A stretch of 64,000 nucleotides of DNA from Candidatus Aenigmatarchaeota archaeon (GTDB lineage Archaea; Aenigmatarchaeota; Aenigmatarchaeia; GW2011-AR5): assembly GCA_016184005.1 (NCBI GenBank), contig JACPDL010000002.1:1-64000 (forward strand), in the 5' to 3' direction. The position numbers and the translations under genes were made by a program. The notes under the pieces were generated by a model that was not told the origin of the DNA, ran no database searches, and saw only the letters and a program-made list of their open reading frames with translations. Shown here in pieces: positions 17,654 to 58,293 of the stretch. How positions within the stretch are numbered: the first letter of the stretch is position 1; each line of letters opens with the position of its first letter.

Positions 17654-17654
17654 T
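17514..17654. repeat. Perfect 141-bp repeat within giant gene (copy B)
   Basis: Identical to 15619-15759. The N-terminal fragment of the giant gene reads into this copy in the wrong frame and stops at 17637. Neighbouring repeats of the same protein are far more diverged at DNA level, which makes a perfect 141-bp match conspicuous. Confidence 0.9.
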
Positions 17655-20600
17655 AACTGCTTCGCCTGTTGCTGAAATATTGAGCCTGATTACACTTAAT
17701 CCGGCCTGATTAATTGCGACAGTTGATGGATTGAGAGACGTGCCTCTTACTATCATGCTGCCATGTATTTTTGTTTCGACAGACGAGGTTGTAGTTGTAA
17801 GGGTGATATTCGTTGAGCTTGTGAGGTTTTCTCCTGTTGTTGCACCTATAACGCTATAATCGCCTCTGTTGGCAAGACTGAAATTGAAGGTCTTATTACC
17901 TGCTGTTGATGAGTCATTTATTGTAATGACAACAAAGAGTGTTTTTCCTCCTGCTGTGAAATCGAAGCCCAGTCCTGCAAATACATACTTTCCTGATGCT
18001 GATGTATTTAACGGGTTTCCAATTCTTGTGTCGCCTGAGTTGAATGTGCCGCTTAGATCAGTGTCATTGAACAATGATACATTGTACACTTCTCCGTCAG
18101 CAACTGATCCAGTTCTTGTGAGATTCAACACACTAAGGTTCATGCCTTCTCCTGTTGATGTAAAGTTAAGCTGCAACACAGTCAATCCAGATGTATTGAC
18201 AACCTTGTTTGCAGGTGCTGTTGTCCTTCCTGTAACAGTTGTTACCCCATGTATTGTTGCCGTGTTTGATGTAGCAGTTGTCAGTGTTTCTGTAATATTT
18301 GCACCGGATGTTGTTCCTACTGCATTTATGTCAGAAGCAGACGCTAAGCTCAGGTTGAATGTGTTGCCTGCGGTTGAGTTTGTCGATACCACAACAAGCA
18401 AGGTGTAGTTTGCAACTGATGTGGTTGATATGTTGTAATTTATTCCAAGAAATTCATACTTGCTGCTTGCTGTAGTGTTCTGCGTTGTTCCTATTCTAAG
18501 ATCGCCTGCGTTGAACGTGCCTGAGAGGTCTGTATCGTTGAACAAGGTAACGTTGAATATATTTCCTTCAGCGGCTGTTCCGCCGCGTGTCAGCTTTATC
18601 ACAGAGATATTCATTCCTTCATTTGTTGATGTGAAATTTAATTGCAGAACAGAAATACCTGCCACATTAACCGCTCTTGTTGTCTGCAACAGGTTTGTGC
18701 CTGTTACTGACAGTGTTCCGCCTATTGTTGCTTGGCTTGAAGTGGTTGTTGTAAGAACTTCTGTCACGTTTGTTGCTGTAACAGCGCCAACAGCTTCTAT
18801 GTCGCCTGTGCCATTGATGCTCAGGTTGAATGTCTTTCCAGCAGCTCCTGCCGCTGTTGATGTATTAACAACTATAAAGACGCTGTTAACGCCGCTTGTT
18901 GTAATATTAAACTGGAAAGTTGTCGTAAATTTGAATGTACTCGCTGTTGTTGTATTAAGTTGTGGGCCTATTGTTGTATCGCTTGCTGAATCAAAAACGC
19001 CATTTCCGTTTGTGTCGTTGACAAGCCTTACATTCGTCAGGTTCGCCTCTGTGGCGCTTCCTATCACCGATATGTTGAATGTCGCTATGTTAAATCCTTC
19101 GCCAACTGAAGTAAAGTTCAACAGCATAACAGATGTCTCTGTTCCTATAGGCACTGTAGAGTTGACAAGGTTCGTGCCTGTTACAGTCAAGTTGCCGAAT
19201 ACTGTTGATGACGTTGAAGTAGTGCTTGTCAGATTTTCTGTAATATTTACTGCTGTTGTTGCACCGATTGCGTCAACATCTGTTGTTGTATTTATAGAGA
19301 AGTTAATTTGCCTGAGCACAGACGTTGCTGTAGTGCCAACTTGAATAACAGCAAACAAGCTTTGGTTTGCGCTTGTTGTTACATTGAACTGGAAACCTGT
19401 AAAAGTATATTGGCCACCTGTATTGTTTGCTGTTTGTGTTGAACCTATTTGTGTCGTGTCTGTTGTAGCTGAATATGTTCCACTAAGATCGGTATCGCTG
19501 AATAATTTAATATTTACTATTTCTGCTTCTCGTGCATTTACTCCTGCGCGTGTTAATTTTATAACTGATATGTTCATCTGCTCGCCGGATGCGGTGAAGT
19601 TATAACGGATTACAGAGACATTAACAGAATTGACAACAACTGTTGTTGCTATCTGGTTTGCTCCGCTTATGTTCAATAGTCCTGAAACTGTGACATTAGT
19701 GGTTGATGCGTTGAAGAATCCGTTTGAAGTTCCACGCACCTGCACAACGAATGTCTTGCTGCCGGTTGTTGTTGGCGCCTGGAAGTTTTTTACTGTTATA
19801 TTAAACTTTCCACCGACACCAAGATTACCTCCTGATCCAGGACCTGTACAGTTTATTGCATTTAACGCTGCTGTTACAGTCTTTGTCCAGCCACGATCAC
19901 ACGTCACATCACCGGCAGCAGGATCCGTATATGCGGAAGCCGTGTAATCTATCATGATGCTGTTTATAGTCTCGCCGCCTGTGTTCTCAACAGTGAAATT
20001 GTAATTATCAGAAGCTGTTATTTTCGTTGATGTGAAATCGAGTACAGCTGTGGCAGTTAAATCTGTGATCTGCGTTTCACCAACTGGATTAAGAGGCAAT
20101 CCGGTTGCTGTTACAGATATAGCTGATGAGCTTCCTGTAACAGGCACGTTTGCTGCTATGCTAATGTTTGCATCCAATAGATTGCCACCAGTTGCTGTTG
20201 AATTTATATCGTAAGCAAGTATCAATCTTGTGTCTGCAGTTGCAGTCACATTAAGCAATTGTGAAGTCCCACTACCAAAAATCAGAAGGCTGCTTGTCTT
20301 GGTTGCTGTGGCGATAAGGAAGTCGCCGGCGTTAATGCCTCCGCTCCTGTCTGTGTCATTGTACAATTTAGCAGCCGAAACATCGTCGTTATTGGTGTTG
20401 TTCATTGATACATTAATCTGTGTAATATTCATCTGCTCGCCAGCTGCCGTTAATGTGATGTTCAATATTGGGACATCAAGCTGGCCGTCGTTTGCTGTTG
20501 CAGGTGTGAGATCAGAGCCTGCAATGGTCAAAGTACCAAATATCATTGTCACGTTGCCGTTTGTAGTAGTCAGTGTGATGTTCGACGAGCCTGTTATGTT

Positions 20601-35931: not shown

Positions 35932-37215
35932 CTAGAACGTAGGCGTGTTGCCTTCAACGCCCTTCACTGTTATTGTTGTTTCTTTGTCGACGTTGTAAAG
36001 GTAGTAAAGGTCGAATGTCATCAGTATTTCGCCGAAAGGCCTGCTTGTCCAGGCCTGCCTGTCTATGGCAAGGGTGCAGCCGAAAGGCGCTTTCTTGTCA
36101 GATCTCAGGCGCAAAATTTCTGAATTGCCTCCCAGCAATAGCTGCTGGTTGCCTGTCGTAAAGACACTTGGTGTAACAAATACAGGTGATGCTATCTGAC
36201 CTCTGTTCAATGCAGCCGAGACACCGTTTCCTAGACAATCATCAAACTGTACTCCAGATCCGGAAAGTGTTACTGCGCCAAGAACAAATCCGCCCTGCTT
36301 TCCTGTCTGACCAGGTGCTCCTGTAAATTCTGCAGGGGTTGGTATGCCGTTGCCAACATTTTGCAGCTCTATAATATATGTGGCTCTCTCTATCGGATTC
36401 TGGCTTATTGCAACAGGATCTGTATTAACAATAATAGGGCTTGTTGCCCTTGTTACTGCTACTTTGATAGGAGCACCTCCAAGCGGGTGTTCTACTTTAA
36501 AAGTAGCGTCAACAGGTTTGCCCAAGTTTATCCTTGACTCGTATTCGTTCTTAGTCATGACAGGAATCGTTATTGACGCTGTTGTTTTGTAAACATAAGT
36601 TACCCTAACTGCAGGATGAAATTCTGTCCTTAGCCCTTCAGGCAGGACCGGAGGTACAAGCGTCCAGTCTGCCGTGAATGATTGTCCTGGCCTGTTTCTC
36701 TCCTTGTCTGGTGGTGCTAGTTCTTCCTGGAATTTGAAGACTTGTTGCAATTTCGCATCGTTCTTGAAAAGGTTCTTGTTGCATATTGCTTCTTTGCTGA
36801 GATCTGAGAATATGTTACCTATGAATCCTGAAAGTGATAATCCTCCAGCTCCTTTAGCTACGGAAACGCAGAAGTTCTTTCCTATGCACAGGTTGCCGAA
36901 GAACGAGCCCGAAGAAGAGAAGCCGATTGCATTGAAGTCAGATATGCCTTGCAATGAAAGTGTATCGCCCGTTGTGGTCCTCCAACTGTCAACATTTAGC
37001 AACTGTGCACGCACGCACGAAGCGGTTGTGCCTCCTACATTCTGAATATCAGCAAAGAATGAGACGAGGTCTGTTTGTTCTACGATGGCTCTGTCTGCTG
37101 AAAATTCATTGATCTTTAATCCGTTGTTGGGATCTATGGTTGTTGTGCCACCCACGCATGCAGATACAAATACCATGGCGAGCAATGAAAGCAGCAAAGG
37201 GGCAAATTTCTTCAT
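35932..37215 (-). CDS. Envelope lipoprotein 4 of a paralogous cluster
   Basis: A 427-residue protein with signal peptide LLLSLLAMVFVSAC (lipobox VSAC), then NNGLKINEFSADRAIVEQTDLVSFFADIQNVGG, a CARDB-like beta domain. The shared module follows: RPGQSFTADWTLVPPVLPEG ... VRVTYVYKTTASITIPVMTKNEY. The second half has a VNTDPVAISQNP-type beta domain and a C-terminal TVKGVEG. It is closest to the adjacent 344-residue lipoprotein. It is the last gene of a four-gene lipoprotein group on the minus strand. Confidence 0.8.
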   Translation of the reverse strand: MKKFAPLLLSLLAMVFVSACVGGTTTIDPNNGLKINEFSADRAIVEQTDLVSFFADIQNVGGTTASCVRAQLLNVDSWRTTTGDTLSLQGISDFNAIGFSSSGSFFGNLCIGKNFCVSVAKGAGGLSLSGFIGNIFSDLSKEAICNKNLFKNDAKLQQVFKFQEELAPPDKERNRPGQSFTADWTLVPPVLPEGLRTEFHPAVRVTYVYKTTASITIPVMTKNEYESRINLGKPVDATFKVEHPLGGAPIKVAVTRATSPIIVNTDPVAISQNPIERATYIIELQNVGNGIPTPAEFTGAPGQTGKQGGFVLGAVTLSGSGVQFDDCLGNGVSAALNRGQIASPVFVTPSVFTTGNQQLLLGGNSEILRLRSDKKAPFGCTLAIDRQAWTSRPFGEILMTFDLYYLYNVDKETTITVKGVEGNTPTF

Positions 37216-37267
37216 TTTGAATGCACTTGGATAAATTAAGTCTTTGGCGATATAAATAGTTTAACTT

Positions 37268-38302
37268 CTATGCTCGTAACCCTTTAACCGATACTTTAGT
37301 TTCTTTTTCTATGAAATAAAGATAGCTCAAATCAAAAGTTATGGTTACTGTGCCAAAAGGTCTTGAAATCCATTGGTTTCTTGCAAGTCCTAATGTACAG
37401 GAAAAGGTTGCTGATTCACCATTCCTAAGAACTACGCCATTGTCGTTTTCAGGAAGAGTGATCACATAAGAGGACGATTCATAAGTTTGCTGGGAAGGTC
37501 TTTGTAATAACGGTTGTTCTAGTGCAGTTCCTGTATTAATGCAGTCCACGGGTGTTATGCCGCCTGAAAACCTGACAGTGCCTTTCACAAGGCCGTTGAT
37601 ATTGTTGGTAAAGGGGATGCCGTCTCCGGTGTTTCTGAGAGTAATAGTATAGACAGCCGTTTCTTTGTCGTTGAGTCTTGTAATGTCTGGATCCGTGTTA
37701 ACAACAATCTGCGACGGGCCTGAGATCAAGACCTTTATGGGCCCGTTAGTGCTAGTTGCTTCCAAGGATTTCAGGTCCTGCGATTGCCTGAATTCATTTT
37801 TTGTATATATCGGTATATTTAGTGCAGCGGATGTGGAATATTCATAAGTTGCGCGGCCAAGCAAGCGGAAATCCTTTATAATACCTTCAGGAATAAAAGG
37901 CGCCTGCAATGTCCAGCCTACAACCCGAAATTCTCCCGGCCTGTTCAGGCTGGCGTCCGGAGGCGCAAGTGTCGTGTAAAAGTAAGGGGTGTTGCCTGCT
38001 TTATCTACAGGGGTGAACGAAAACTCTGGCAGGGGCTGGCCAATCTTTGCGATTGCCGGCGCATTCTCACGCTGCTGCTGGTCGAAGGCTGTAGAAATAA
38101 GCTCAAGTTTTACCGACTTGGCTGTGCGGCCCCCTACATTTTCCAGTTCCATATATGCGTGAAATATATCGCCGCTGTCAACGCTGCTTGGATCTGCAAA
38201 GAATTTGTTTATCGTTATGCCATTATTTTCATCTGTGCGCAGATCCCGGGTAACGCAGCCTGCAAGAAACACCATTAGCATTACAGTTAATAGAATTCTC
38301 AT
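37268..38302 (-). CDS. Envelope lipoprotein 3 of a paralogous cluster
   Basis: A 344-residue lipoprotein (signal MRILLTVMLMVFLAGC). Landmarks match the next paralogue: NNGITINKFFADPSSVDSGDIF, RPGEFRVVGWTLQAPFIPEG, ATYEYSTSAALNIPIYTKNEF, VVNTDPDITRLNDKE and SVKGLRA at the end. It starts in the stop codon of the preceding gene (ATGA overlap), so translation is coupled. Probably outside-facing and lipid-anchored. Confidence 0.8.
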   Translation of the reverse strand: MRILLTVMLMVFLAGCVTRDLRTDENNGITINKFFADPSSVDSGDIFHAYMELENVGGRTAKSVKLELISTAFDQQQRENAPAIAKIGQPLPEFSFTPVDKAGNTPYFYTTLAPPDASLNRPGEFRVVGWTLQAPFIPEGIIKDFRLLGRATYEYSTSAALNIPIYTKNEFRQSQDLKSLEATSTNGPIKVLISGPSQIVVNTDPDITRLNDKETAVYTITLRNTGDGIPFTNNINGLVKGTVRFSGGITPVDCINTGTALEQPLLQRPSQQTYESSSYVITLPENDNGVVLRNGESATFSCTLGLARNQWISRPFGTVTITFDLSYLYFIEKETKVSVKGLRA

Positions 38303-39267
38303 TTGACCACCTTTAGCTGGGACTGTGCCCGCACTTCGTAATTATATAGAAGCGGCACTAAAACCTGATAGTCAACGAGCTGTTGCGCATTCTCAGGCAA
38401 TTTAAGCTCGCATGCTATGCGGGGAAAAACTTTTCCTGAGGGATATATTGTCTTGAAGTCCCTGCAACAAAGGATGTCGCTGCAGTAAGTCTCTTCAGAA
38501 CCGGTTTTCTGGAATATCTCAGACTGCTTTTGCAATAGAGCCAAGAGCAGGTCTGTTGCCTGAAGCGCATTCTTGAATTCCCCGAAACGGAGATTCTTTT
38601 GTTCGATAGGCATGAAATTTTCGCCGAATGTTATCTTGTCAACAAAGCCGTTGCCGATATTTCTTATGGTGAAGTAAACAAAATACTGCCTGCCTTTTCT
38701 CGCAACTATCGGCATGTCGTCGCTGAATTCTATATCCATCTGCATGTTCCTGTCCCTGTACGTGTACACGCGCGGCCTCGTGTTTATGTTTCCTGCAAGC
38801 TTTTCACGCGTGTATATTTCTTCATTCATTATATCCAGCGTCTGCACTGCTGTAAGCACGCTCTGGAACTTCGCGCGGGCATTAATTGTTTCGCTTTGCG
38901 TTTTCTGGATAATTGGCATAGCCTGGACGGTGCAGCTCAAGGCCGTTATCTGGTCGGGCAGCAATTGCGGTATTGAGAGCTTGCATTCGTTGCTTTTCCG
39001 GAGATTGCCCGTATCGAAAATTTCGAGAATGATATTTCTTATCGGCGCAACATCTTTATTCTGGGCGTCGAGATATAGTGTTGTTTTGCTGCCTGCAAAA
39101 ATTTCAGAAGGCGAAGATGACAAAGAAACTCCAAGGCCTTCCTGCACCCGTATTGGCTGCTGCCCCTGCAATGCGCCAATCGGGTTGAAACCAGGGCTGA
39201 AAGGATTGAGCTGGCTCACGCATGCGGACAAAAAAACAACTGAGAGCAGCAAAAAAATATATTTCAT
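38299..39267 (-). CDS. Envelope lipoprotein 2 of a paralogous cluster
   Basis: A 322-residue lipoprotein (signal KYIFLLLSVVFLSAC). A CARDB-like domain (SPSEIFAGSKTTLYLDAQNKD) precedes a weaker form of the shared module (RAKFQSVLTAVQTLDIMNEE). It ends with a Cys-containing region (YCSDILCCRDFKTIYP) and a beta strand set, YEVRAQSQLKVVK. It overlaps the next gene by 4 bp and follows the first lipoprotein by 13 bp. Confidence 0.75.
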   Translation of the reverse strand: MKYIFLLLSVVFLSACVSQLNPFSPGFNPIGALQGQQPIRVQEGLGVSLSSSPSEIFAGSKTTLYLDAQNKDVAPIRNIILEIFDTGNLRKSNECKLSIPQLLPDQITALSCTVQAMPIIQKTQSETINARAKFQSVLTAVQTLDIMNEEIYTREKLAGNINTRPRVYTYRDRNMQMDIEFSDDMPIVARKGRQYFVYFTIRNIGNGFVDKITFGENFMPIEQKNLRFGEFKNALQATDLLLALLQKQSEIFQKTGSEETYCSDILCCRDFKTIYPSGKVFPRIACELKLPENAQQLVDYQVLVPLLYNYEVRAQSQLKVVK

Positions 39268-39280
39268 TTAAGCACCACGT

Positions 39281-40624
39281 TCATTTCTCGAAAGGCCTGA
39301 TGGTGATCGGGAATGAGCTGCGCAGCTCATAGTCATAATCGACGTACGCATTTATCAAATACGTCTTGAAAGGCTCAGAAATATCAACGATCCTGCTTAT
39401 CTGGAAGCGCAATGTCGTTCTTGTCTCATCGCGGAAAAGCTGTATGGGCTTCACGTTGGTGCATTTCACTTTGTTTGTTTCTACTCTGCATTCAAATCGC
39501 GGCCCTTCTGTAGATGCTGATTGCGACTGTACTGGCAAATCAACTGCGAATGGGTTAATAATTTCTGTCTGTTGAGATCGACTTTGCTCACAAGTGCCTT
39601 GCGAAGGAAAAGAAGATACAATTATATCTGAACCAAGGCATGATTGTACTGGATCTTTTGGTTCATTGCAATAATAGTAAACTCCTGCTTCACCAGTTGA
39701 TTTACACAAAAACCATTCAATAGTTCCTTCTATATTATTTTCTGTTGCCCTGCCTGTTACGAGGTTGCCTCTTACTGCAAAAGCCATGCCGACACCGAAT
39801 ATAGGCACATCGTCATATCTGCCTTGTATCTGGAATTCTTTGCCGTCAACAATTAACTTCGAGTTTCCTGCAAACAACTCAAGCGGGAATTCTATGACAA
39901 GCTTGCGCGTTTCTATCTGTGAACCAACTATGTTGCCTTTGCCTTTGTTTTTCACGTTGAATATGAATGTGCCCGAGAAGCCTGAGAGCAGGTAAGGCGT
40001 TCCGAAGAGCTGCACGTCAATCTGCACGGGCCCTGAGCCATGGGTTACTTGCTCCGTAAGGCCGATAGAGCGCCCCTGCCTCTGGCTAATCTCTATTTCC
40101 TTCTGGTTGACAACAGGAATCGTGTAAAGCAGGTTGCCCTTGAATTTGTAGGTTGCTTTGTAGCTCAATTCCGTATCTGTTTTTATGCGCGCTATCTCGC
40201 TCTCTGTGGGCGCAAGCAGCTGGAAGTTTATGGACCGCTGCTCGCCCGGGAATATTTCACAAGGCCTGCTTTTGCGGCATATGTCAGGCTGGCACTTGCT
40301 GCCCTGATTACACAGCGGCGATTTTGGCCCCAGATCCTGGTCATATGCCTTGAACAATGGCGCATTGAAGAGTTCTACGTACACGCTTCTGGCTGATTCT
40401 GCCTTGTCCACGTTTTCCAGAATAAAAGTGAACAGCACCGGCTGGTCAGGAAGCGCGGGCGATCTGGGTATGCTGGTTGCATCCTTTATCAGAACCACGT
40501 CCTTCAGGCCTTCTTCGCTGATTTTCCTGCTGATGCTCAGCACGTCTCCGCCGAAGATGCCTGACAACTCGACGCATCCAGAAACGAGGAGTATTGCGAT
40601 TATAGACAGCGACACGTACTTCAT
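39281..40624 (-). CDS. Envelope lipoprotein 1 of a paralogous cluster
   Basis: A 447-residue lipoprotein with signal KYVSLSIIAILLVSGC. The track's 21-residue upstream extension is not needed. It has a first domain with SPALPDQPVLFTFILENVD, a Cys-containing loop (CNQGSKCQPDICRKSRPC), the shared module (YKATYKFKGNLLYTIPVVNQKE), a second beta domain and a Cys-bearing region. It is first in the operon. A TCACTGAT half-dyad lies at its start. Confidence 0.78.
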   Translation of the reverse strand: MKYVSLSIIAILLVSGCVELSGIFGGDVLSISRKISEEGLKDVVLIKDATSIPRSPALPDQPVLFTFILENVDKAESARSVYVELFNAPLFKAYDQDLGPKSPLCNQGSKCQPDICRKSRPCEIFPGEQRSINFQLLAPTESEIARIKTDTELSYKATYKFKGNLLYTIPVVNQKEIEISQRQGRSIGLTEQVTHGSGPVQIDVQLFGTPYLLSGFSGTFIFNVKNKGKGNIVGSQIETRKLVIEFPLELFAGNSKLIVDGKEFQIQGRYDDVPIFGVGMAFAVRGNLVTGRATENNIEGTIEWFLCKSTGEAGVYYYCNEPKDPVQSCLGSDIIVSSFPSQGTCEQSRSQQTEIINPFAVDLPVQSQSASTEGPRFECRVETNKVKCTNVKPIQLFRDETRTTLRFQISRIVDISEPFKTYLINAYVDYDYELRSSFPITIRPFEK

Positions 40625-40752
40625 CCGATCACTGATAATAAATTGCCAGCGGCCAGATATAAACGTTAAGAATGTTAAATTCAACACCTGAAAGCAAGTT
40701 AAAAAAATAGAAAGCTTAAATATTATGTTTCGTATCTATAGATAGTGATTGT

Positions 40753-41447: not shown

Positions 41448-42311
41448 ATGGTGGAGTTTTTCCAGGCCTACTTTCTGGATCCTATAAGATTCAATACGGG
41501 CTACAACATTGTCAATACGGCTGCTTACGCGATTATTTTCGTCGCCCTTGTTTTCGTTACATACAGGCTGCTGAAGCTGCTCAAGATAAAGGTCGACAAG
41601 AACTTCTTCATTGCAATCGCGCCGTACATAGCGCTGGGAAGCATACTGCGCGCATGGGAGGACCTGATAGAAACCACGCAGGCAATACCGGAGATATTTT
41701 CCCGCTTCGTGCTGATCGATGCCTATGGAACAGCCAGAAACCTGCTTCTGATAACGCCGCTGATATACATATTCATGTTTGTTTTGGCGCTATCGGCGCT
41801 GCTTCTTTCAAAATTGCTGGAGAGGCGTGCAAAAATACCTTACCACAAGACATGGCTTGCGATCGGCGCTGTGATGTGCCTGCTTGGCGCAAGCCAGCTG
41901 CAGCTGAACAATGCGTTTGCACTATTTGCGATGCTGGGCATATTTGGCGTCTGGGCGCTTGTGATCGCAGGCTCGCGAGTTGCCTTCAGTGAATTTGCAG
42001 TGGTCAAGAAAACGCTGACGAAGGAGAATACGCTGCTGATACTTGTTCATATGTTCGACGCAACAACAACGTTTGTCGCGCTGCAGTTCTTCCCTTATTT
42101 CGAGCAGCACGTGCTTGCAGGCTTTTTTATCAGCATACTGGGCCCAATCGGGATATACGCCCTGAAGCTGCCTGTCGTAACGGCTGTCCTGCACTATATT
42201 GACAAAGAGCTTCCCGAAGGGGAGAAAAGAAACTTCATAAAGATAGCGATACTGATCCTGGGCTTGGGCCCCGGACTGAGAAATTTCCTGCGGCTGGTCA
42301 TGGGCGTATAG
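41448..42311 (+). CDS. DUF63-family membrane protein
   Basis: A 287-residue protein with about eight membrane helices. The start YFLDPIRFNTGYNIVNTAAYA and IAPYIALGSILRAWEDL match the archaeal DUF63 family; a further VHMFDATTTFVALQFF is also typical. The function is unknown. The gene is 28 bp upstream of the next plus-strand gene of the envelope island. Confidence 0.85.
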   Translation: MVEFFQAYFLDPIRFNTGYNIVNTAAYAIIFVALVFVTYRLLKLLKIKVDKNFFIAIAPYIALGSILRAWEDLIETTQAIPEIFSRFVLIDAYGTARNLLLITPLIYIFMFVLALSALLLSKLLERRAKIPYHKTWLAIGAVMCLLGASQLQLNNAFALFAMLGIFGVWALVIAGSRVAFSEFAVVKKTLTKENTLLILVHMFDATTTFVALQFFPYFEQHVLAGFFISILGPIGIYALKLPVVTAVLHYIDKELPEGEKRNFIKIAILILGLGPGLRNFLRLVMGV

Positions 42312-44660: not shown

Positions 44661-45839
44661 TTATGGTGTTTTTATTAGCTTTCTGCAAATTTTGCCGTTT
44701 GACCTAGATTCAGTTTCTTTACTAAAAGGCAACCTCCATAAGCGGATATTGTCACTCCCACCGGAAAGGGCGTATAATCCGTCAGGAGAAAATGCTATAC
44801 TGTAGACATGCGAAGCAAGCGAGTGTGAAAATTGAATTGTTTCCTTGCCGCTTTCAACATCCCAGAGACGGATAGTCATATATCCAGCAGAAATCGCATA
44901 GCAGTCATCAGGTGAAAAAGCAACACTGTAAATATTAGAATTGTGCCTAAGGCGGTGGACTTCTTCTCCGGTCGCCAGATCCCACAGGCGGGCTACTTCA
45001 TCCGAACCTCCTGAAAGGCCGTACTTTTCATCATGGGAGAAAGCAACGCTAAAAACACTATCCCAATGCCTGAATCTGCGCAATGCTTTTCCGGTTTTGA
45101 CATCCCAATGGTAAACAAATCTGTCGCTGCTGCCAGAAAGCGCTGTTTTTCCATCAGGCGCGAATGCTACTGTGTTAACTTCTTCCTCACCATGCCCAAT
45201 AAATGGCTGAATCTCTTTCCCGGTTGCTGCGTCCCACAAGCTAAGTTTTCCACTTGAACCGCCTGTAAGAACGTGCCGGTTGTCATGCGATAGTGCACCT
45301 GTTTCTCCTCTAAAGCGGCGGATTTCTTCCTTGCTCTTGACGTCCCATAAACGGACAGTCCCATCTTGACTACCTGATATAACAAACTTACCGTCTTTTG
45401 AAAACGCCAAGGTTGTAACTGGGGTTCTTTTTGTATAATTGTGACCGACAAAGCGGTCAATTTCTTTCCAAGTTTCTATATCTCGCAAGTAGATGTCACC
45501 CTGGCTTGCAAAAATGGCATAGTTACCGTCTGGTGAAATTGCCACACTTAAACTTCCTAATCCTTCTTCAAAACGGCGCATCTCGCCCACTTTGATCCTG
45601 GGCTGATAAGATGACTCATCTTTGGTTTTCTCTTCTATCTGAGGCTTTTTCTGCAATTGATAAGCGGGCTGTTTAACAGTTTCTTGTTTCTTGAATGGAT
45701 AAATATTTTTTTGTGAAACTAATGATTGCGGCGGCTGCGAGGAAGTGCTTTGTTTTGTTGGTATGCTGTTGTAACCCAACACCACAGCTGCGCCTACAGC
45801 CATACCGGCAAGATAAGGAAGTACCCGCCTGAACTGCAT
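44661..45839 (-). CDS. Membrane-anchored WD40-repeat protein
   Basis: A 392-residue protein with an N-terminal anchor (RRVLPYLAGMAVGAAVVLGYN), a linker rich in Gln, Lys and Pro, then about seven WD repeats (VSGSQDGTVRLWDVKSKEE, ALSGSSDRFVYHWDVKTGK, ALSGGSDNIRLWRL), forming a propeller. It is probably a scaffold for protein partners in the envelope complex. Bacterial-style WD40 repeats are unusual in small archaeal genomes. It is upstream of the 43.6-kb gene on the same strand. Confidence 0.85.
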   Translation of the reverse strand: MQFRRVLPYLAGMAVGAAVVLGYNSIPTKQSTSSQPPQSLVSQKNIYPFKKQETVKQPAYQLQKKPQIEEKTKDESSYQPRIKVGEMRRFEEGLGSLSVAISPDGNYAIFASQGDIYLRDIETWKEIDRFVGHNYTKRTPVTTLAFSKDGKFVISGSQDGTVRLWDVKSKEEIRRFRGETGALSHDNRHVLTGGSSGKLSLWDAATGKEIQPFIGHGEEEVNTVAFAPDGKTALSGSSDRFVYHWDVKTGKALRRFRHWDSVFSVAFSHDEKYGLSGGSDEVARLWDLATGEEVHRLRHNSNIYSVAFSPDDCYAISAGYMTIRLWDVESGKETIQFSHSLASHVYSIAFSPDGLYALSGGSDNIRLWRLPFSKETESRSNGKICRKLIKTP

Positions 45840-45900: not shown

Positions 45901-45936
45901 TTTAAAACCTTTCCATATTATGTCACTTATAAGTGA
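45901..45936 (+). promoter_or_regulatory. TATA box and TCACTTATAAGTGA dyad
   Basis: A TATA-like TTTAAAAC (45901-45908) lies about 26 nt before a perfect 14-bp palindrome TCACTTATAAGTGA (45923-45936). The palindrome covers the expected TSS of the next gene, a position where a repressor would act. It is the cleanest example of the dyad seen near several genes of the window. Confidence 0.55.
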
Positions 45937-45941
45937 TAAAA

Positions 45942-47297
45942 ATGGGAATCAGAGCAAGGCCTGGGAGCCGCGATCCGGAATCGCAGGCGAGAGAAGTTTA
46001 CTTCGGAAAAGGAGAATCCGGACGAGCCGAGCTTATTCTAGAAATGGCAGGCTACGATGGACAAAGAATAACCACATTACTTCAGAAATGGTATAGAGAA
46101 GAGGCTGAAAAATCTTCGGCAGAAAGGCCCATATTAGGCGGCTCCAACGGCGGAAAAAATAATGGACCGGATGAGGGGGATCGGCCTGGAAGCCGGGCAC
46201 TGAAACGTATCCGTGATGCGCTTTTCTTTGGTATAACAGATTCCTTGCCGCCATTGGGAGTAAGCTGGCCACGGAAGCTGTCCCCGCGAATCAATCTGCT
46301 GCCGACAAAAGCCCAACTTAAATCATATCGAAAAGCAAGAAAAGCGCACGCAAAAGGCAACATTCTGGAAGCCGATCAAATACTATCTGAAGGCGGCTAT
46401 TGTATTACAACATCGGATGAATTATTTGAATCATGGAGCAGATGGAATCAGAAAAGGCCTGTAACAGAAAGAACAGGATTGGCAGCATACGAAAAAGAAC
46501 TAACAGATGAAACAGAATCAGGGCCGGAAGTTAGAGCCGATAGGCGTTTCAGGTATGTTACTCGATTAATAGGTTCTGGCTTATTGGTTGCTGGAGCTCT
46601 AATTGCTGCAGGTTCAATAAGTTATCAATATGTTATTGAGCCATACTTCAGCCAGCAAGTTTCAGTGCAAAGGCCAGCACAAACTGCACAGCAAAAACCT
46701 GAAGCAAAACCAGCTGCGCCGAAAAGAGAACCGGGTGCGTCCGCTGCGCCTGCACAGCAAAAACCGGGTTTTCATGGTCCTATTGCCCCGCCAGCAGCAC
46801 AGCCCGGAACAACTGAACCACCTAGAGCAAGGGTGCAAGAACCTGCAGCGCCGGTATCTGCGCCGGAAAGGCCGCCAACACCTGCGCAGGGAGCAACTCA
46901 GCCTGCGCCGTCACAGAAAGTATTTTTTTATAGAGATGAATATGGAGCAAGAAGGGAACTTCCTGTTTACGGTTCAAGATGGACTATTGATAAAGTAAGT
47001 GCAGGCAACGAAGGGGAAAATCGTGCTTGGTTGTTACTGGAAACGTTTTACGATGTGAATCGTGATGGCTATAGTGATAATTTTGAACCACAATTGCCGA
47101 TAGAGTTGGAACGTTATTCACAGCAAGAAGCTGAAGAAATGAGAGATAAGATAGGCCAGTGCAAAGGCCAGAATGAAGCAGTATATGTCATGCTTGGCAG
47201 ATCTGTTTATCCTCAAACAGACAGAAACCACAACGTCTTGGGAATAAAGGTTCCCAGAGAATATGTGAAATTTCTTTCGCGGGGCTGTTTGGATTAA
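45942..47297 (+). CDS. Envelope-island protein with two helical repeats and Pro-rich linker
   Basis: A 451-residue protein. The N-terminal region has two copies of a helical repeat of about 40 residues: QAREVYFGKGESGRAELILE followed by MAGYDGQRITTLLQKWYREE, and ARKAHAKGNILEADQILSEGG. The same repeat occurs at the N-terminus of the 1458-residue protein. One membrane helix (about 208-228) is followed by an Ala/Pro/Gln-rich linker and a C-terminal domain of about 120 residues (YDVNRDGYSDNFEPQLPIEL, an acidic loop of calcium-binding type). The track's first codon is GTG; the ATG at 45942 is preferred. Confidence 0.65.
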   Translation: MGIRARPGSRDPESQAREVYFGKGESGRAELILEMAGYDGQRITTLLQKWYREEAEKSSAERPILGGSNGGKNNGPDEGDRPGSRALKRIRDALFFGITDSLPPLGVSWPRKLSPRINLLPTKAQLKSYRKARKAHAKGNILEADQILSEGGYCITTSDELFESWSRWNQKRPVTERTGLAAYEKELTDETESGPEVRADRRFRYVTRLIGSGLLVAGALIAAGSISYQYVIEPYFSQQVSVQRPAQTAQQKPEAKPAAPKREPGASAAPAQQKPGFHGPIAPPAAQPGTTEPPRARVQEPAAPVSAPERPPTPAQGATQPAPSQKVFFYRDEYGARRELPVYGSRWTIDKVSAGNEGENRAWLLLETFYDVNRDGYSDNFEPQLPIELERYSQQEAEEMRDKIGQCKGQNEAVYVMLGRSVYPQTDRNHNVLGIKVPREYVKFLSRGCLD

Positions 47298-49775: not shown

Positions 49776-52700
49776 TTATTTATTCTTTAATTCGTTATAT
49801 TTGTTTCTGCAATGCTCATTTGCATAAGCGGCGCCTAGTTTATCATCATCCAAGCAGCATAAGTTGAATCCGAGTTCTGGATCTCTACATTCAAGAGGTA
49901 TTCTTTCAGTATTTTCTATACTTCCTCCATACGCAGGGTTGCATTCGCTTGTGCTCTTGCAGGCACCTTCTCCTATTGTGCATGTTCCTCGGGCTAAAAG
50001 CTTGTTCGAGCAGTAATCAGGCCCGCCGAAAGAAGTTGTTGCGGCTTGCTGGGCCTGTTGTGCTTGGTTGAAGCACGATACCCACTTAGGATACCATTTG
50101 TCGAGCACTGCAGTAGTGTAACCTGCGTTTTTTTCTTTACAAGAGGTTCCTCCGTTATAGCCGCCGATGCCTTCTGTAATGCCACCGCATCTTTCTATTT
50201 CATTAGTAAGATGTATGGCTCCTGCTTTAATGGCTTTTTCTGGCAGGAATCTTTCATCGCTTGATTTCGAGCATGCAGTAGGCGTGCAGCTGTTGCAGGC
50301 AGAAACTTTGATCTGACACAAATCTATGTTGCACTCCTCGAAATTATAGACAGGCACACTTAAACCAAGGCTTCTTGCTGTTTTTGGAATAAATTGCACA
50401 ATGCCTGCAGAGCCACAAGGACTTACAGCATCCTTGTTCCATTCTGATTCTTGTGAAATAAGCGCAGCGAGCAGGGCTTCAGCATTATAGCCGCGTGAGG
50501 ATGCTGCTGTCTTTAATCCACTACTATCAACAGCACTTGTTATTACATCTTTGTACTGGTTATATTTGTTAATGTAATCGTTTGATAGTCCTGAAACACT
50601 ACAAGTTATAGCTCCAGTTGGTGTCGTGCCAGGTGTTGTTGTCTTTGCTACGCATCTGCCGTCGTATGATCGATCCTTAACTGTAGTTTGCAGATCAGTT
50701 CCTGGAATGCCTACAGGTGTTGTTTTATCAGAAGGTATCCACGTGCAACCAAGGCTGCATCTTTGCGAAGCTTCTGTTTCGCAATCGTATTTTTGCGTGA
50801 ATGTGCTGCAGGACTTTTCGAAGCAGGCGCGGCACAAGCCTGTATCAGCTATAATGCCTGAACCCGGCGGTCTTTGAGATGTGTCAAGCCAGCATTGGCC
50901 AGATTGTGGTTTTGTGCTGTAGCATGTGCTTCTTGTGCACGAACTTAATATTCCTATTTGTGTGCCGCATTGGCTGCATTTTGTATCGCTTGGATTGGCA
51001 GCGATGCCAATGAAACCCGTTATTGGCACGGACTGCTCCTTGATGATCCTGAATTCATATGTTGGCAGCTCGGCTGTTATCAATCCAGTCTGCACGCCTG
51101 TAGCTGCTAAACTGCTGTCAGGAACGGGCTGGAAGCTGCACAATACTGAAAATATGCTGCTGAGCGCATACTGCCTTATCTCCTGGTTGTTCTGCATGAC
51201 GTATACCAATGCCTCTTCGCGCGAGGGGTCGAAATCGACATTAATTTGATTGGGCATAGGTATTTTGCCTGGATTCTGCAGTTTTATGCCGCCAGCACCA
51301 CAATCTAAGCCTCTGCCGATTACTTTCTGCATCCGGATTATGATCACATCCTTTAGCTGGCGAAGGAATATTCTTCCGTCGTCGCGCGCATTTGAAACAG
51401 AGACAAGCAGCAGGGCGCGCTTGCCGGATTCCAGAGGCTGCGGGCCGACATTCAGTGACAGCTGCGCCGGAGATACCTTGCCCACTGCAACAACCTGGCG
51501 AAACACGTCTTCTTTTTCTGCGAAGCGCCTTTGGAATTCATTCTTGCTCATCACTGAAACAAGCAGTGAGGAGTTGGTCGAGTACTCGTAGCTCAGGTTT
51601 ATGTAAACAACGCCAAGCCTTGACTCAGCTTGTCTGTCTTTCTCGTACTTTGCCCTGAGACCGCGAATCTCAATTCTTCCCGCTTCGCCCGGCATGAGGT
51701 AAGCTTCGCCGTTTCTTTTATCTAGTGAAGTTATTTGGGCTTTTTTGCCGTCAGTGAATTCGCAGTATGAATTACATTTTACATTTTCGATGTCATTTTC
51801 GTCTGCAATTTTTATGTTGCGGGCAGGCAAGTCGCCGTCATTCTTGACAACCAAGAACATAGCGAACTCAGCGCCTTGCGGCACGGCCTGCGGCAGCAGG
51901 TTTATGCTTGTTATTTCCAGCGCGCGCGGTATAGCCATCGGCCTTTCGGGCCGCACATTGGTTGTCTGCTGCTTTGCGTACCAGGCAGTAGGATTGGTAA
52001 CCAGCAGCGATATGTCGCTCACCGCATTCGTTCCGGCGCGCCATGCAACAAGCACGGGCGTGCGGACCTGATTAATTGCTCCCTCGTACATGGCCTTGTA
52101 GGGCCCCAGCGCCACCCAGCCGAAGATCAGAACTATTACAGACATTTTCAGAACTATTGGAAAGCCGCCTGTCTGGTAGAACTGGAAGATGCCGAAGAAT
52201 ATGAACAGGAAAGCAAACAGCATGTAGTAATAGAATGTATCAAGATACAGCCCTGGCTGGCCGATCAATGCGAAAAGGAATATCGTGATACCCTGGGCTA
52301 TCAATGCCCCGGAAACCATGCTATCCAGGTGATCCAACGCATACTTGTTCGACTCGAAATTCATGACCCAGTTTATTGCGGCGCCTGCAAGCGGAATTAT
52401 GTAAAGGAACAAACTGGCGTTCAGTGCATATGTTGGTATTATGAAGAATGAAATGAATCCGGCCATCACGACAAATGTCATGATCAATCCGAGAATCATC
52501 GGCCCCCATATGAAATCCCAGATGTTGTAGAGCATCTGATACCAAATATTGCGCAGCGTACTACTTTTCATTGATAATCGTGTCATCGCACCTGCAATGC
52601 CACGCAATCGGGCTCTACCAGTGCGTGCATATTGTTCAGCAAAAGCTGCCGCTTCTCCTTTAAGTTCAGCTTTTATGTATTCTTGTGCTTCTGTGAAGTC

Positions 52701-54152
52701 TCGTCCTATCTTATATCTGTAAATTTGTTTTGCCGCTATCTGTTCTGCCGCTGGCTCAAGTCTTTTTTGTATAGTATCTCTCAAAGATTCCAATTCAGAT
52801 GTCAAAAGCTTGTTCATTTGTGCTTCTGCATTCGAAAATCTCTCAAAAGTTTCGCGCAATTCACTTTTTTCACTATCACGCCTGTATTTCCCTAGCACAT
52901 CCTCTAGAAGTTGGTTTGTGCCACCCATTCCAAGAGGCATTTTAAAGCCCCGGCGTATTGTGTAACGGAAAAATCTTCCATAAGCAGAAATGCTTTTTAA
53001 CGCCTTTTTTTTTGCTGCAAAATAATCTTTCCTTGTGGCTACTAGCCTTTCCTTTGCTGCCTTTATTCTGTCTTGATATTCGTTAAGCAAACCTTCTGCG
53101 TAGAGTCGTCCAATACTATTCAGTTCAGCTTTACCCCTATTCACGGCCATCGTAACCCGAGGTAGATTCTTTTGGCCTAATCTTCCTGCTGCTTTTAGCT
53201 CCATTCTTCCTGCGCCGAAAGTAGAGCTTTTTTTTGGCATCCATCCAGGCGTTAAACTGGAACGTGGTTTTAGAAATTCTGCCTCACTTGTAGTTTCTTC
53301 AAAAACTGCTACTGCTCTCGTACTAACTTCAATATCAAATTCGTAAATTGTGTTAGGAGTATCATCAAATTTTTCATTGCCTGCAAAAAACACCCATGCT
53401 TTGAATTTATAGAATTTGTTTCCGTCGCGATGTTTTTCTGGAGCTTCTAATTTAATTGGAGATCCAAGATCGAATCGCTCTCTATAGGAAGTTTCTTTTT
53501 CTGCATCATTTATTTTAAACTTAATCTTTTGCGGCGGATATGAAACAACTGTCAAAATAGGTCTGCTAGGATCATTCGCACTGCCACCGCCTATTGGTGT
53601 AGCCATTCTATCTGGCGGAGATCTTCTTCTTTCTCTTTCCTGATGCCAATTGTACATTCCACGCTCGATTTGCTGTTCTGAATAACCGGCGTTTCGCAAA
53701 ATTTTCACAGCTTCACCATCATTTCCTTGAGCATATGCTTGTCTTGCTTGTTCTACAGGATTAGTTTCAGGAGTTGGTTCAGGTGAAGCAGCATTAGCAT
53801 CACGAGGTCTTCTTGGCGGTGGCAAGTCGTCTATAGCTAATTGTTGCAGTCCTTCCATTAGTATTTTGGGTCTGGATCTGAGCCAGTCTCTTATTGGCTG
53901 TCGTTGGATTTCTGGTGGCAGTAAATTAACTCTAAAACGCGGATTAGGTTTACGAGATAATTTTGCCTCTTCAATTTCCTTGGCTCTCGCGAATGATATT
54001 GGTTCTCCGGTTTTTTTTCTTGCTTCCGATCTCCAGTCTTTCCAAATACTAGCTATATCTTGGTCTGGATAACCTAATCTTTTCAATATTATTCCGGACT
54101 CTGTTTGATCTCCATTCATGAAAGCATCTTTCGCTTCTAGAAAACTAGTCAC
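49776..54152 (-). CDS. Giant membrane protein with C-terminal lytic-transglycosylase-like domain
   Basis: A 1458-residue protein. Two N-terminal helical repeats (FLEAKDAFMNGDQTESGIIL; ARQAYAQGNDGEAVKILRNA) match the 45.9-kb protein. A helical cytoplasmic region with coiled-coil character (about 330-520) precedes about seven membrane helices (about 545-735). The outer part has the lipoprotein-type module (VVYINLSYEYSTNSSLLVSVMSKNEF), beta domains and a Cys-rich segment, and then an SLT/lysozyme-like domain (about 1250-1390): LLAALISQESEWNKDAVS with the catalytic Glu, GSAGIVQFIPKTARSLGLS and GIGGYNGG. A Cys-rich tail ends it. The GTG start is supported by a strong SD and by repeat homology. Confidence 0.85.
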   Translation of the reverse strand: MTSFLEAKDAFMNGDQTESGIILKRLGYPDQDIASIWKDWRSEARKKTGEPISFARAKEIEEAKLSRKPNPRFRVNLLPPEIQRQPIRDWLRSRPKILMEGLQQLAIDDLPPPRRPRDANAASPEPTPETNPVEQARQAYAQGNDGEAVKILRNAGYSEQQIERGMYNWHQERERRRSPPDRMATPIGGGSANDPSRPILTVVSYPPQKIKFKINDAEKETSYRERFDLGSPIKLEAPEKHRDGNKFYKFKAWVFFAGNEKFDDTPNTIYEFDIEVSTRAVAVFEETTSEAEFLKPRSSLTPGWMPKKSSTFGAGRMELKAAGRLGQKNLPRVTMAVNRGKAELNSIGRLYAEGLLNEYQDRIKAAKERLVATRKDYFAAKKKALKSISAYGRFFRYTIRRGFKMPLGMGGTNQLLEDVLGKYRRDSEKSELRETFERFSNAEAQMNKLLTSELESLRDTIQKRLEPAAEQIAAKQIYRYKIGRDFTEAQEYIKAELKGEAAAFAEQYARTGRARLRGIAGAMTRLSMKSSTLRNIWYQMLYNIWDFIWGPMILGLIMTFVVMAGFISFFIIPTYALNASLFLYIIPLAGAAINWVMNFESNKYALDHLDSMVSGALIAQGITIFLFALIGQPGLYLDTFYYYMLFAFLFIFFGIFQFYQTGGFPIVLKMSVIVLIFGWVALGPYKAMYEGAINQVRTPVLVAWRAGTNAVSDISLLVTNPTAWYAKQQTTNVRPERPMAIPRALEITSINLLPQAVPQGAEFAMFLVVKNDGDLPARNIKIADENDIENVKCNSYCEFTDGKKAQITSLDKRNGEAYLMPGEAGRIEIRGLRAKYEKDRQAESRLGVVYINLSYEYSTNSSLLVSVMSKNEFQRRFAEKEDVFRQVVAVGKVSPAQLSLNVGPQPLESGKRALLLVSVSNARDDGRIFLRQLKDVIIIRMQKVIGRGLDCGAGGIKLQNPGKIPMPNQINVDFDPSREEALVYVMQNNQEIRQYALSSIFSVLCSFQPVPDSSLAATGVQTGLITAELPTYEFRIIKEQSVPITGFIGIAANPSDTKCSQCGTQIGILSSCTRSTCYSTKPQSGQCWLDTSQRPPGSGIIADTGLCRACFEKSCSTFTQKYDCETEASQRCSLGCTWIPSDKTTPVGIPGTDLQTTVKDRSYDGRCVAKTTTPGTTPTGAITCSVSGLSNDYINKYNQYKDVITSAVDSSGLKTAASSRGYNAEALLAALISQESEWNKDAVSPCGSAGIVQFIPKTARSLGLSVPVYNFEECNIDLCQIKVSACNSCTPTACSKSSDERFLPEKAIKAGAIHLTNEIERCGGITEGIGGYNGGTSCKEKNAGYTTAVLDKWYPKWVSCFNQAQQAQQAATTSFGGPDYCSNKLLARGTCTIGEGACKSTSECNPAYGGSIENTERIPLECRDPELGFNLCCLDDDKLGAAYANEHCRNKYNELKNK

Positions 54153-55376: not shown

Positions 55377-56213
55377 TCAAGGATCCATTGCAAAGACTGA
55401 CAACGGCCTGTAACTTACTGTTCTTTGCTGTTCCTCAGCTTTCTGTGGTTCTCCAGAGAAAACGACTACACGGGCTGTACCCGAGAATCTGGAATTCTTA
55501 TTCGGTATGATTTCCAGCTTATTTTCTCCAAGCCTGATAACAGTCTGATTCAATTTTATGGACTGCAGGTCTTTTGCAAAGCCTGAAAAGACCTCTTTGT
55601 CATTCAGCTCCACTTTCATGCTGCCAATGTTCTTGTCCATTACTAATTCTACACGGGCTTCGTCAAATTCCTGATCTGAACTCAATAGGAAAGCCGATTC
55701 TTTCTTGCCGAAGTAAAGGCTCCTCAATTCCAGCCTGACATTTTTCACATTGTATTCATTTGCTGCCCATATCTTCCACAAAGAAGACCACGGCCTTACC
55801 TGAATATTCATCTTGTCACTAAGCATTTCTCCGGGAACATCAACAGTATAGTCGCCGATAGCATAATTGCCCTGCACCACCCTCTTGCCGTTTACCATTA
55901 TCTCCAGAGGCGCAAGGTTGTTTGAGCTGGCAACAGAGAAGCTTATTGTCATGTTCTGTGCGCCTTGGGTTTCCACATGCCTGGTTATTTCGTTGCTCCC
56001 GAAAAACAGGCCGTTGTAAAGCTTCTTGCTGCCAAGGCTGGCTTCCTGTACTTTGCTAACATAAGCTGCATCAAACTGCGTTTCAAATATAGTCGTATTT
56101 GTCCTTCTTTCCTCTTCCCCTGCGGGACCAATATTGAATACCATAAGCAAGCCGAAAAGCAAGAGGAAAAGTCCGACTAACAGGAACACCAGAAACTCGT
56201 CTACATCGCCCAT
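55377..56213 (-). CDS. Membrane-anchored protein with beta-rich outer domain
   Basis: A 278-residue protein with an N-terminal helix (EFLVFLLVGLFLLLFGLLMVF), then a beta-rich outside domain. PLEIMVNGKRVVQGNYAIGD and KVELNDKEVFSGFAKDL suggest two related jelly-roll or Ig-like units. It is not recognised. A TCACTAACAAGTAA dyad and a TATA-like TTTTTAAGG lie directly upstream, with leaderless spacing. Confidence 0.65.
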   Translation of the reverse strand: MGDVDEFLVFLLVGLFLLLFGLLMVFNIGPAGEEERRTNTTIFETQFDAAYVSKVQEASLGSKKLYNGLFFGSNEITRHVETQGAQNMTISFSVASSNNLAPLEIMVNGKRVVQGNYAIGDYTVDVPGEMLSDKMNIQVRPWSSLWKIWAANEYNVKNVRLELRSLYFGKKESAFLLSSDQEFDEARVELVMDKNIGSMKVELNDKEVFSGFAKDLQSIKLNQTVIRLGENKLEIIPNKNSRFSGTARVVVFSGEPQKAEEQQRTVSYRPLSVFAMDP

Positions 56214-56792: not shown

Positions 56793-57233
56793 TTACGACA
56801 ATTCTTGCATCTCTTTCTTGAGCATTGCTATCTGGCGCTGCAGGTCTCCAAGCGAGTCTCCGATGTGGGTCATCTCTGTTTCTGTTTCCTTTGCTTCAAC
56901 CATGAAGCCCCTGGGCCGCAAAAGCTCTGAATCCATTTCGTATATGTTCTTTTCCAGCCTTGCAACGCTGTTGCGGAGAATCTTCAGGGCATCCGAGCGC
57001 ACCGTCTCTGCCTCGTGTATGACGCCGTATAATTGTTTAATTGAGCCAACAAAGCCCTTCATCTCGCTAAGAGTAGTTATGATGTCCCTGTATTTCTCTA
57101 CCTTGACAAAAAGAGGGGCTTCCTTGTGTTCTTCAATAAACGAAGGCAATTCTTCATGATCAGTTTCAGGGGGCTCTATCATTGCCTGCTTTATTTCCCT
57201 GATATCGTCTCTTTCCTTCTTTTTGAAAAACAT
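56793..57233 (-). CDS. Coiled-coil protein of unknown function
   Basis: A 146-residue, highly charged helical protein without membrane segment: KYRDIITTLSEMKGFVGSIK, then ARLEKNIYEMDSELLRPRG and LGDLQRQIAMLKKEMQELS. It is probably a dimeric coiled coil. Not recognised. It is isolated between palindromes and tRNA genes. Confidence 0.6.
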   Translation of the reverse strand: MFFKKKERDDIREIKQAMIEPPETDHEELPSFIEEHKEAPLFVKVEKYRDIITTLSEMKGFVGSIKQLYGVIHEAETVRSDALKILRNSVARLEKNIYEMDSELLRPRGFMVEAKETETEMTHIGDSLGDLQRQIAMLKKEMQELS

Positions 57234-57657: not shown

Positions 57658-58293
57658 TTAAACTTTCACTTTCTTTGCCCATCTTTTTGATAGATCTGAG
57701 ACAGTATCTTTCAGACCAAGACCAAGAGCAATTGCCATGCCCAAGCCAACAGAAGCTATGACTACCAGCAAGATGTTGTTTACAAGCGTTGCTGATACGC
57801 CAAGTATAGGCAATGCCAATGCAACTGCCACGTACATTACCAAGAAGAATAATGTCTTGGCAGTAAGCGTAGCCCATACCTTATTAAGCTGCTTCATGTG
57901 GTGCTTTATGTACTCAGCAAGGACGTAACCAGCAATGAGAATTGCTGCTGCTCCTATCACTCGCGGGATGAATGCATTGATCTCTGCAACCCACAGCGAC
58001 ATGGCTGGAATGCCCAATATCTCCATGGAAGTTGCTACCGTTATGAAACCAAGATAAATCCACCATTTAGCAATAACTGAAAAGATATTGCTAAGACTTA
58101 CCGCAGGTTTGTCTGTTTCTGAAACGTAGTAGTCCAGACGTATCTTATCAAGCACATTTTTTACAGCCCTTCCTAATATCTTGCCTACAACCAAGCCTAT
58201 TACAAGCAGGATTATGGCTGCCAACAAGTTAGGCAGAAGTGCTGTAGCGTTTGCTGTCAGCTGGGAAAGTACGTCGACAACTTGAAAAGCCAT
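57658..58293 (-). CDS. MscS-like conserved-TM-helix protein
   Basis: A 211-residue membrane protein with about five helices. LLAAIILLVIGLVVGKILGR and LVVIASVGLGMAIALGLGLKD are the 'conserved TM helix' motifs of the CmpX/MscS-related family. The large cytoplasmic beta domain of MscS is absent. It is probably a small osmotic or mechanosensitive channel-like protein. Confidence 0.82.
   Translation of the reverse strand: MAFQVVDVLSQLTANATALLPNLLAAIILLVIGLVVGKILGRAVKNVLDKIRLDYYVSETDKPAVSLSNIFSVIAKWWIYLGFITVATSMEILGIPAMSLWVAEINAFIPRVIGAAAILIAGYVLAEYIKHHMKQLNKVWATLTAKTLFFLVMYVAVALALPILGVSATLVNNILLVVIASVGLGMAIALGLGLKDTVSDLSKRWAKKVKV

What the first reader, a model, noticed from the sequence alone, without database searches (positions are those of the whole stretch)
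49776..54152. 1458-residue archaeal membrane protein with an SLT/lysozyme-like domain
The C-terminal domain has the catalytic-Glu motif (SQESEWNKDAVS), GxxQFIPKTA and a final GGYNGG, all typical of lytic transglycosylases, which cleave murein. Archaea lack murein, and no peptidoglycan genes are in the window. The domain sits outside the cell behind about seven membrane helices, with cytoplasmic repeats at the other end. It could act on a host or competitor wall or on a novel glycan, or be part of a secretion or attachment machine.
Basis: partly seen in the sequence, partly recalled or inferred. Interest (0 to 1): 0.85.

Follow-up and report, generated by a model that had tools for sequence, protein, structure and literature searches.

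The report
Archaeal surface protein with swappable wall-cutters
A tiny uncultured archaeon that makes no bacterial-type wall carries a large membrane-anchored protein ending in an enzyme that cuts such walls, and its relatives keep the anchor but swap in other wall-cutting enzymes, which suggests that these archaea physically breach the walls of bacteria.

Summary
Window 49776-54152(-) encodes a 1458-aa protein with a genuine lytic-transglycosylase domain: Pfam SLT E=1.6e-16, catalytic Glu1235, GIVQ and GGYN motifs, and an AlphaFold model matching MltF, MltC and Slt at Z 13-14.5. The genome is Ca. Aenigmatarchaeota (DPANN). No penicillin-binding transpeptidase and no Mur ligase were found in it.

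Topology is 5 membrane helices, not 7. There are 0 Cys before them and 34 after, so the enzyme is outside and the N-terminal repeats are inside.

The main discovery came from orthologs. The membrane and Ig-like scaffold is in 26 of 31 genomes of the order, in a conserved gene neighbourhood. The C-terminal enzyme is swapped: SLT, a second lysozyme-like type, M23, GH73, VanY, Amidase_2 and an esterase. Even the sister species, with a 91% identical core, carries a different enzyme. So many unrelated murein-specific activities on one scaffold point to bacterial peptidoglycan. Other families of the phylum instead carry SLT and M23 domains in an operon of pilin-like proteins.

Best reading: a contact-dependent wall-breaching device used on bacterial partners or prey. 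Lytic transglycosylases in DPANN were known; the swappable scaffold and pilin-like operon appear new. Activity and target are not shown experimentally.

The parts
49776..54152 (-). 1458-aa membrane scaffold protein with C-terminal lytic transglycosylase
   Evidence: ORF; Pfam SLT; orthologs
54000..54137 (-). N-terminal ~42-aa helical repeat, copy 1 (aa 6-51), cytoplasmic
   Evidence: repeat alignment z 9-12; 0 Cys in aa 1-550
53613..53750 (-). N-terminal repeat, copy 2 (aa 135-180)
52503..53165 (-). conserved charged region aa 330-550, cytoplasmic
   Evidence: conserved in same-family orthologs; 7 K/R versus 2 D/E just before TM1
52101..52502 (-). five transmembrane helices aa 551-684
   Evidence: hydropathy; helices in AF2 model (low confidence)
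51939..51995 (-). signature NPTAWYAKQQ..NVRPE just outside the membrane (aa 720-738)
   Evidence: near-invariant in order-level orthologs
51009..51932 (-). two Ig-like beta-sandwich domains (aa 741-1048), signature SLNVGPQPL
   Evidence: AF2 pLDDT about 75-89 in much of this part; Ig-like matches up to Z 10
50568..50975 (-). Cys-rich linker aa 1060-1195
   Evidence: sequence; 34 Cys in aa 690-1458
50109..50507 (-). SLT / lysozyme-like catalytic domain (Pfam extent aa 1216-1348)
50448..50450 (-). catalytic Glu1235 codon
   Evidence: aligned to Slt70 E478; invariant in A3
49779..50027 (-). small disulfide-rich C-terminal domain aa 1376-1458, mobile between positions in orthologs
45933..47297 (+). 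454-aa single-TM Pro/Ala-rich protein sharing the N-terminal repeat (two copies): candidate partner
55377..56213 (-). 278-aa N-terminal TM protein, conserved neighbour
   Evidence: orthologs in 10 loci
56793..57233 (-). 146-aa coiled-coil-like protein, conserved neighbour
   Evidence: 8 loci
57658..58293 (-). MS-channel-like TM protein, conserved neighbour
   Evidence: PF05552; 8 loci
41448..42311 (+). DUF63 membrane protein, conserved neighbour
   Evidence: PF01889; 16 loci
35932..40687 (-). four tandem lipobox-bearing secreted proteins, conserved neighbours
   Evidence: lipobox; 12-16 loci

Best explanation
The protein is a membrane-anchored, outward-facing peptidoglycan hydrolase used for contact with bacteria. 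Cytoplasmic N-terminal repeats and a helical region (which may dock partner proteins such as the repeat-bearing neighbour) lead into five membrane helices. An Ig-like and disulfide-rich stalk then holds a GH23-type lytic transglycosylase away from the archaeal surface. On contact with a bacterial cell the tip cleaves MurNAc-GlcNAc bonds locally, opening the wall so that the archaeon can attach, take up nutrients or DNA, or kill the cell. The scaffold is inherited vertically while the tip is swapped among murein-cutting enzymes, probably as bacterial partners or wall chemistries change. Shown by computation: domain identity, catalytic residues, fold, topology, absence of murein synthesis, conserved scaffold and locus, tip swapping. 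Inferred: activity, murein as substrate, contact dependence, benefit to the archaeon.
For: SLT profile, catalytic residues and fold. Topology N-in/C-out from 5 TM helices and 0 versus 34 Cys. No transpeptidase in any of 155 Aenigmatarchaeota genomes, although 10 of 14 control genomes ring; no Mur_ligase_M in this genome. Scaffold in 26 of 31 genomes of the order with conserved neighbours. The same ORF carries a wall-lytic domain in 15 of those 26: SLT; M23+SLT; GH73+M23; GH73+VanY; SLT+Amidase_2; M23; a second LT type, in one case with an esterase, with catalytic motifs of M23, VanY, GH73 and Amidase_2 present where the pattern search found them. The sister species has a 91% identical core but an unrelated LT, and each LT has its best match in a different genus. 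These enzyme classes cut different bonds of murein, and D-Ala-D-Ala is a murein feature (general knowledge). Archaeal murein hydrolases can kill bacteria (PMC12352652).
Against: No experiment. The GH23 fold also includes a chitinase and goose-type lysozymes, which rank among the structural matches, so fold alone does not fix the substrate. No recognised wall-binding domain is in this protein. Cultivated DPANN have archaeal hosts, and one study argued against bacterial hosts for Aenigmarchaeota, with a focus on hot-spring genomes (PMC8407114). About nine orthologs of the scaffold show no recognisable lytic domain, so the scaffold must do something besides carry it. The membrane part of the model is low confidence.
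Confidence: 0.72

Rival explanations
1. Antibacterial weapon only: the tip kills competing bacteria on contact rather than opening a host or prey for feeding or attachment.
For: Tip swapping resembles polymorphic toxins; archaeal murein hydrolases kill bacteria (PMC12352652).
Against: The scaffold is kept in nearly every genome of the order and sits in a conserved locus, more like a core lifestyle trait; a reduced ~0.92-Mb genome suggests dependence rather than competition.
Confidence: 0.15
2. Self-directed enzyme that remodels an unknown murein-like glycan or S-layer glycan of the archaeon itself.
For: GH23 members can cut other GlcNAc polymers (a chitinase is among the top matches); glycosyltransferases and an S-layer protein are in the window.
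Against: Orthologs swap in M23, VanY, GH73 and Amidase_2, which act on murein peptides, D-Ala termini or murein glycan; no transpeptidase in 155 genomes; no lytic domain at all in several orthologs.
Confidence: 0.07
3. Wall-opening accessory of a pilus, DNA-uptake or secretion machine (VirB1-like or T7 ejectosome-like role), cutting the partner's wall to let a channel or filament through.
For: Best viral matches are T7-like internal virion proteins that open the wall for DNA ejection; other families of the phylum carry SLT, M23 and PG-binding domains on pilin-like proteins in one operon.
Against: No T4SS ATPase or pilus ATPase among 31 window proteins scanned; the pilin-like marker is absent from this genome.
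Confidence: 0.2

Closest known systems
GH23 / Pfam SLT lytic transglycosylases (Slt70, MltF, MltC)
   Same: profile, catalytic Glu, GxxQ and YN motifs, lysozyme fold
   Different: archaeal host without murein; fused to a 5-TM Ig-like scaffold; Cys-rich insertion at aa ~1266-1300
Large murein-like lytic transglycosylase proteins of Pacearchaeota and Woesearchaeota (fam00969, PMC8204110)
   Same: large extracellular DPANN proteins with an LT domain, proposed to act on bacterial walls
   Different: different phylum; here a conserved polytopic scaffold with several interchangeable hydrolase classes; sequence relation to fam00969 not tested
Modular archaeal peptidoglycan hydrolases (PMC12352652)
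   Same: archaeal enzymes acting on bacterial murein
   Different: that survey required a wall-binding domain, which this protein lacks; this one is anchored by a polytopic membrane domain
VirB1 / TraG-type T4SS hydrolases and T7 gp16-like ejectosome proteins
   Same: LT (with a second hydrolase in some) opening a wall locally for a machine
   Different: no T4SS or phage context seen; scaffold shows no similarity to solved structures by sequence
Polymorphic toxins
   Same: constant N-terminal delivery part with swapped C-terminal catalytic tip
   Different: no export-and-immunity module identified; tips are wall hydrolases and membrane-anchored

Membership tests
GH23 / SLT lytic transglycosylase | profile match above curated cut-off | tested here: met
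   60.4 bits versus 21.3
GH23 / SLT lytic transglycosylase | catalytic Glu with following Ser (ES), GxxQ and YN motifs | tested here: met
   E1235 S1236, GIVQ 1250-1253, Y1332 N1333
GH23 / SLT lytic transglycosylase | lysozyme/LT fold | tested here: met
   MltF Z 14.5, MltC 14.0, Slt70 13.0
GH23 / SLT lytic transglycosylase | 1,6-anhydro product from murein | not testable with these tools
   needs biochemistry
Pace/Woesearchaeota fam00969 (PMC8204110) | sequence homology outside the LT domain | not tested
   no member sequence at hand; scaffold found only in Aenigmatarchaeota plus one record labelled Nanohalarchaeota and two labelled only archaeon or GW2011_AR5 in the genome scan
Modular archaeal PGH (PMC12352652) | catalytic plus recognised wall-binding domain in one protein | tested here: not met
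   SLT is the only Pfam hit even at E<=1
T4SS VirB1 | association with VirB4 and other T4SS components | tested here: inconclusive
   none among 31 window proteins scanned; rest of the genome not searched
Polymorphic toxin | conserved N-terminal part with exchanged C-terminal domains between close relatives | tested here: met
   core 91% identical, LT unrelated in sister species
Polymorphic toxin | cognate immunity gene | not tested
   a murein-free producer would not need one

The most novel reading that the evidence does not exclude
Aenigmatarchaeota possess a dedicated, vertically inherited apparatus for breaching bacterial walls, built in two ways: a giant membrane scaffold with exchangeable hydrolase tips in one order, and a pilin-like filament operon bearing glycan-cutting, M23 and PG-binding subunits in other families. 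This would make bacteria their hosts or prey, against the published inference for this phylum.
Probability: 0.5. Interest if true: 0.9.

Novelty: new variant of a known kind. Interest (0 to 1): 0.74.

Why it matters
The hosts of most DPANN archaea are unknown, and all cultivated ones live on archaea (PMC11291902, abstract seen). A published analysis argued against bacterial hosts for Aenigmarchaeota (PMC8407114). A conserved surface scaffold that repeatedly acquires different murein-cutting enzymes is genomic evidence of contact with bacteria, makes the host question testable by assay and imaging, and is a source of wall-active enzymes missed by surveys that demand a wall-binding domain.

Tried and rejected
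Contamination: rejected, orthologs lie in many independent Aenigmatarchaeota assemblies with conserved neighbours. Viral or plasmid origin of the scaffold: no relatives in viral contigs or plasmids at the sensitivity used; the SLT alone gives no viral-contig relative and only <40% matches to phage proteins. Own murein: rejected by absence of transpeptidase in 155 genomes and of Mur ligase here; Mur_ligase_M occurs, nearly always once per genome, in 24 of 155 genomes and was not pursued. A known fold for the membrane part: no credible sequence match in solved structures, Foldseek and VIA-align show only Ig-like and other beta domains, model too weak in the membrane, so no claim. First alignment A1 was too diverse to scan with.
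Full report
What is there. The ORF at 49776-54152(-) is real and encodes 1458 residues. Its only Pfam match is SLT, PF01464, at aa 1216-1348, 60.4 bits, E=1.6e-16. It is the only SLT found in the genome. The alignment to E. coli Slt70 puts E1235 on E478. The Glu, the G..Q motif and YN are invariant among orthologous domains. An AlphaFold2 model of aa 1165-1458 has mean pLDDT 73 with the catalytic core near 90, and aligns with MltF, MltC, LtgA and Slt at Z 13-14.5 over about 130 residues. A stretch at aa ~1266-1300 is a low-confidence Cys-rich insertion.

Organism. The genome is 0.92 Mb in 5 contigs, 94% complete. Relatives with names are mostly Candidatus Aenigmatarchaeota, many from groundwater; the same-genus relative is RIFCSPHIGHO2_01_FULL_AR5_44_11.

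Topology. Hydropathy and the model agree on five membrane helices at aa 551-684. There is no cysteine in aa 1-550 and 34 in aa 690-1458, and a positive stretch precedes the first helix. Five helices with these signs mean N-terminus inside and C-terminus outside. Outside follow the signature NPTAWYAKQQ..NVRPE, two Ig-like domains, a Cys-rich linker, the SLT domain and a small disulfide-rich domain. Inside are two ~42-residue repeats, also present twice in the neighbouring gene 45933-47297, and a conserved charged region.

Family. The scaffold without the SLT domain is found in 26 of 31 genomes of the order and, mostly weakly outside it, in 69 of 156 genomes of the phylum. Nearby genes are conserved with it: the MS-channel-like gene, the coiled-coil-like gene, a TM-plus-extracellular-domain gene, DUF63 and four lipobox proteins.

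Tip swapping. The C-terminal part differs between orthologs. Pfam finds SLT (L062, L061, L063, L058), M23 plus SLT (L055, L059), GH73 plus M23 (L060), GH73 plus VanY (L067), SLT plus Amidase_2 (L065), M23 (L076) and an esterase (L056). L053, L057, L054 and L056 share a second lysozyme-like type that is below the Pfam cut-off or unnamed there but mutually similar. In all, 15 of the 26 core-bearing genomes have a lytic domain in the same ORF (11 above Pfam cut-offs, four by similarity to the second type); about nine have none, mostly in other families of the order, and the rest are fragments. Catalytic motifs found by pattern include HxxxD..HxH in M23 (L055, L059, L060), SxHxxGxxxD..WH in VanY, HE in GH73 and HH..GH in Amidase_2. 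The sister species has a core 91% identical to the window's but lacks this SLT and carries the other type after the Cys domain. The window's SLT is closest to L071 (39%) and L059 (37%), although L059's core is only 31% identical; the sister's enzyme is closest to that of L056 (41%). This is exchange of the tip on a constant scaffold. Fusions also occur far off in the phylum: one ORF in G067 carries GH73 with a distant core match, and one in G095 carries SLT with it.

No own murein. Transpeptidase PF00905 is absent from all 155 phylum genomes searched, while 10 of 14 control genomes ring. Mur_ligase_M is absent here and occurs in 24 of 155, nearly always once. In contrast M23 is in 55 of 155, Amidase_2 in 10, GH73 in 11, VanY in 4 and SLT in 36 of 115.

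A second architecture. In families f14 and f19 an operon of about five short proteins with one N-terminal hydrophobic helix, many preceded by K/R-G or K-A as in archaeal class III (pilin-like) signals, includes an SLT protein, an M23 protein and in one case a PG_binding_1 protein. A marker of this operon is in 54 of 155 genomes but in only one genome of the window's order, weakly. In G144 one ORF holds the marker and VanY. The pilin-like assignment rests on these N-termini only.

Mechanism. The most economical reading is an anchored enzyme that opens bacterial walls at contact. The swapped enzymes cut the glycan strand, the peptide cross-link, the amide bond and the terminal D-Ala, a combination of bonds that coexists in bacterial murein (general enzymology). 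Whether the archaeon feeds, attaches, injects, takes up DNA or kills is not decided. The nearest viral SLT matches are T7-like internal virion proteins that open the wall for DNA ejection, a useful analogy, not kinship.

Relation to the literature. Lytic transglycosylases in DPANN are known from Pacearchaeota and Woesearchaeota (PMC8204110, PMC9723730, PMC10936187), and archaeal murein hydrolases that kill bacteria have been shown (PMC12352652); that survey required a wall-binding domain and would pass over this protein. A study of Aenigmarchaeota does not mention peptidoglycan and argued against bacterial hosts (PMC8407114). In the searches made here I found no description of the scaffold, its tip swapping or the pilin-like operon; the library is incomplete, so novelty is provisional.

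Verdict. Real, well supported as to domain, topology and swapping; function inferred. New variant of a known kind.

Noticed in passing
L090:5501-10942, L091:5674-10599, L087:1887-5817, L089:2774-6901: Conserved operon of pilin-like proteins carrying SLT, M23 and (L090) PG_binding_1 domains; possibly a filament bearing murein hydrolases. Marker in 54 of 155 phylum genomes.
   Followed up: partly
window 45933-47297(+): 454-aa single-TM Pro/Ala-rich protein sharing two copies of the ~42-aa N-terminal repeat of the 1458-aa protein.
   Followed up: partly
window 35932-40687(-): Four tandem lipobox-bearing secreted proteins conserved across the order beside the scaffold gene.
   Followed up: partly
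window 17637-22997(-): 1786-aa protein with no Pfam or NCBIfam match.
   Followed up: no
window 44661-45839(-): WD40 beta-propeller protein with an N-terminal hydrophobic segment in an archaeon.
   Followed up: no
L059:8200-14289: Ortholog of 2029 aa whose N-terminus looks like a DnaJ-type domain (by eye), so the cytoplasmic end may be swapped too.
   Followed up: no
L056:3178-5460: Ortholog carrying a PF00756 esterase after the second lysozyme-like domain.
   Followed up: partly
L083:3466-14382: 3638-aa ORF with an SLT domain in an order-level relative, apart from the scaffold gene.
   Followed up: no
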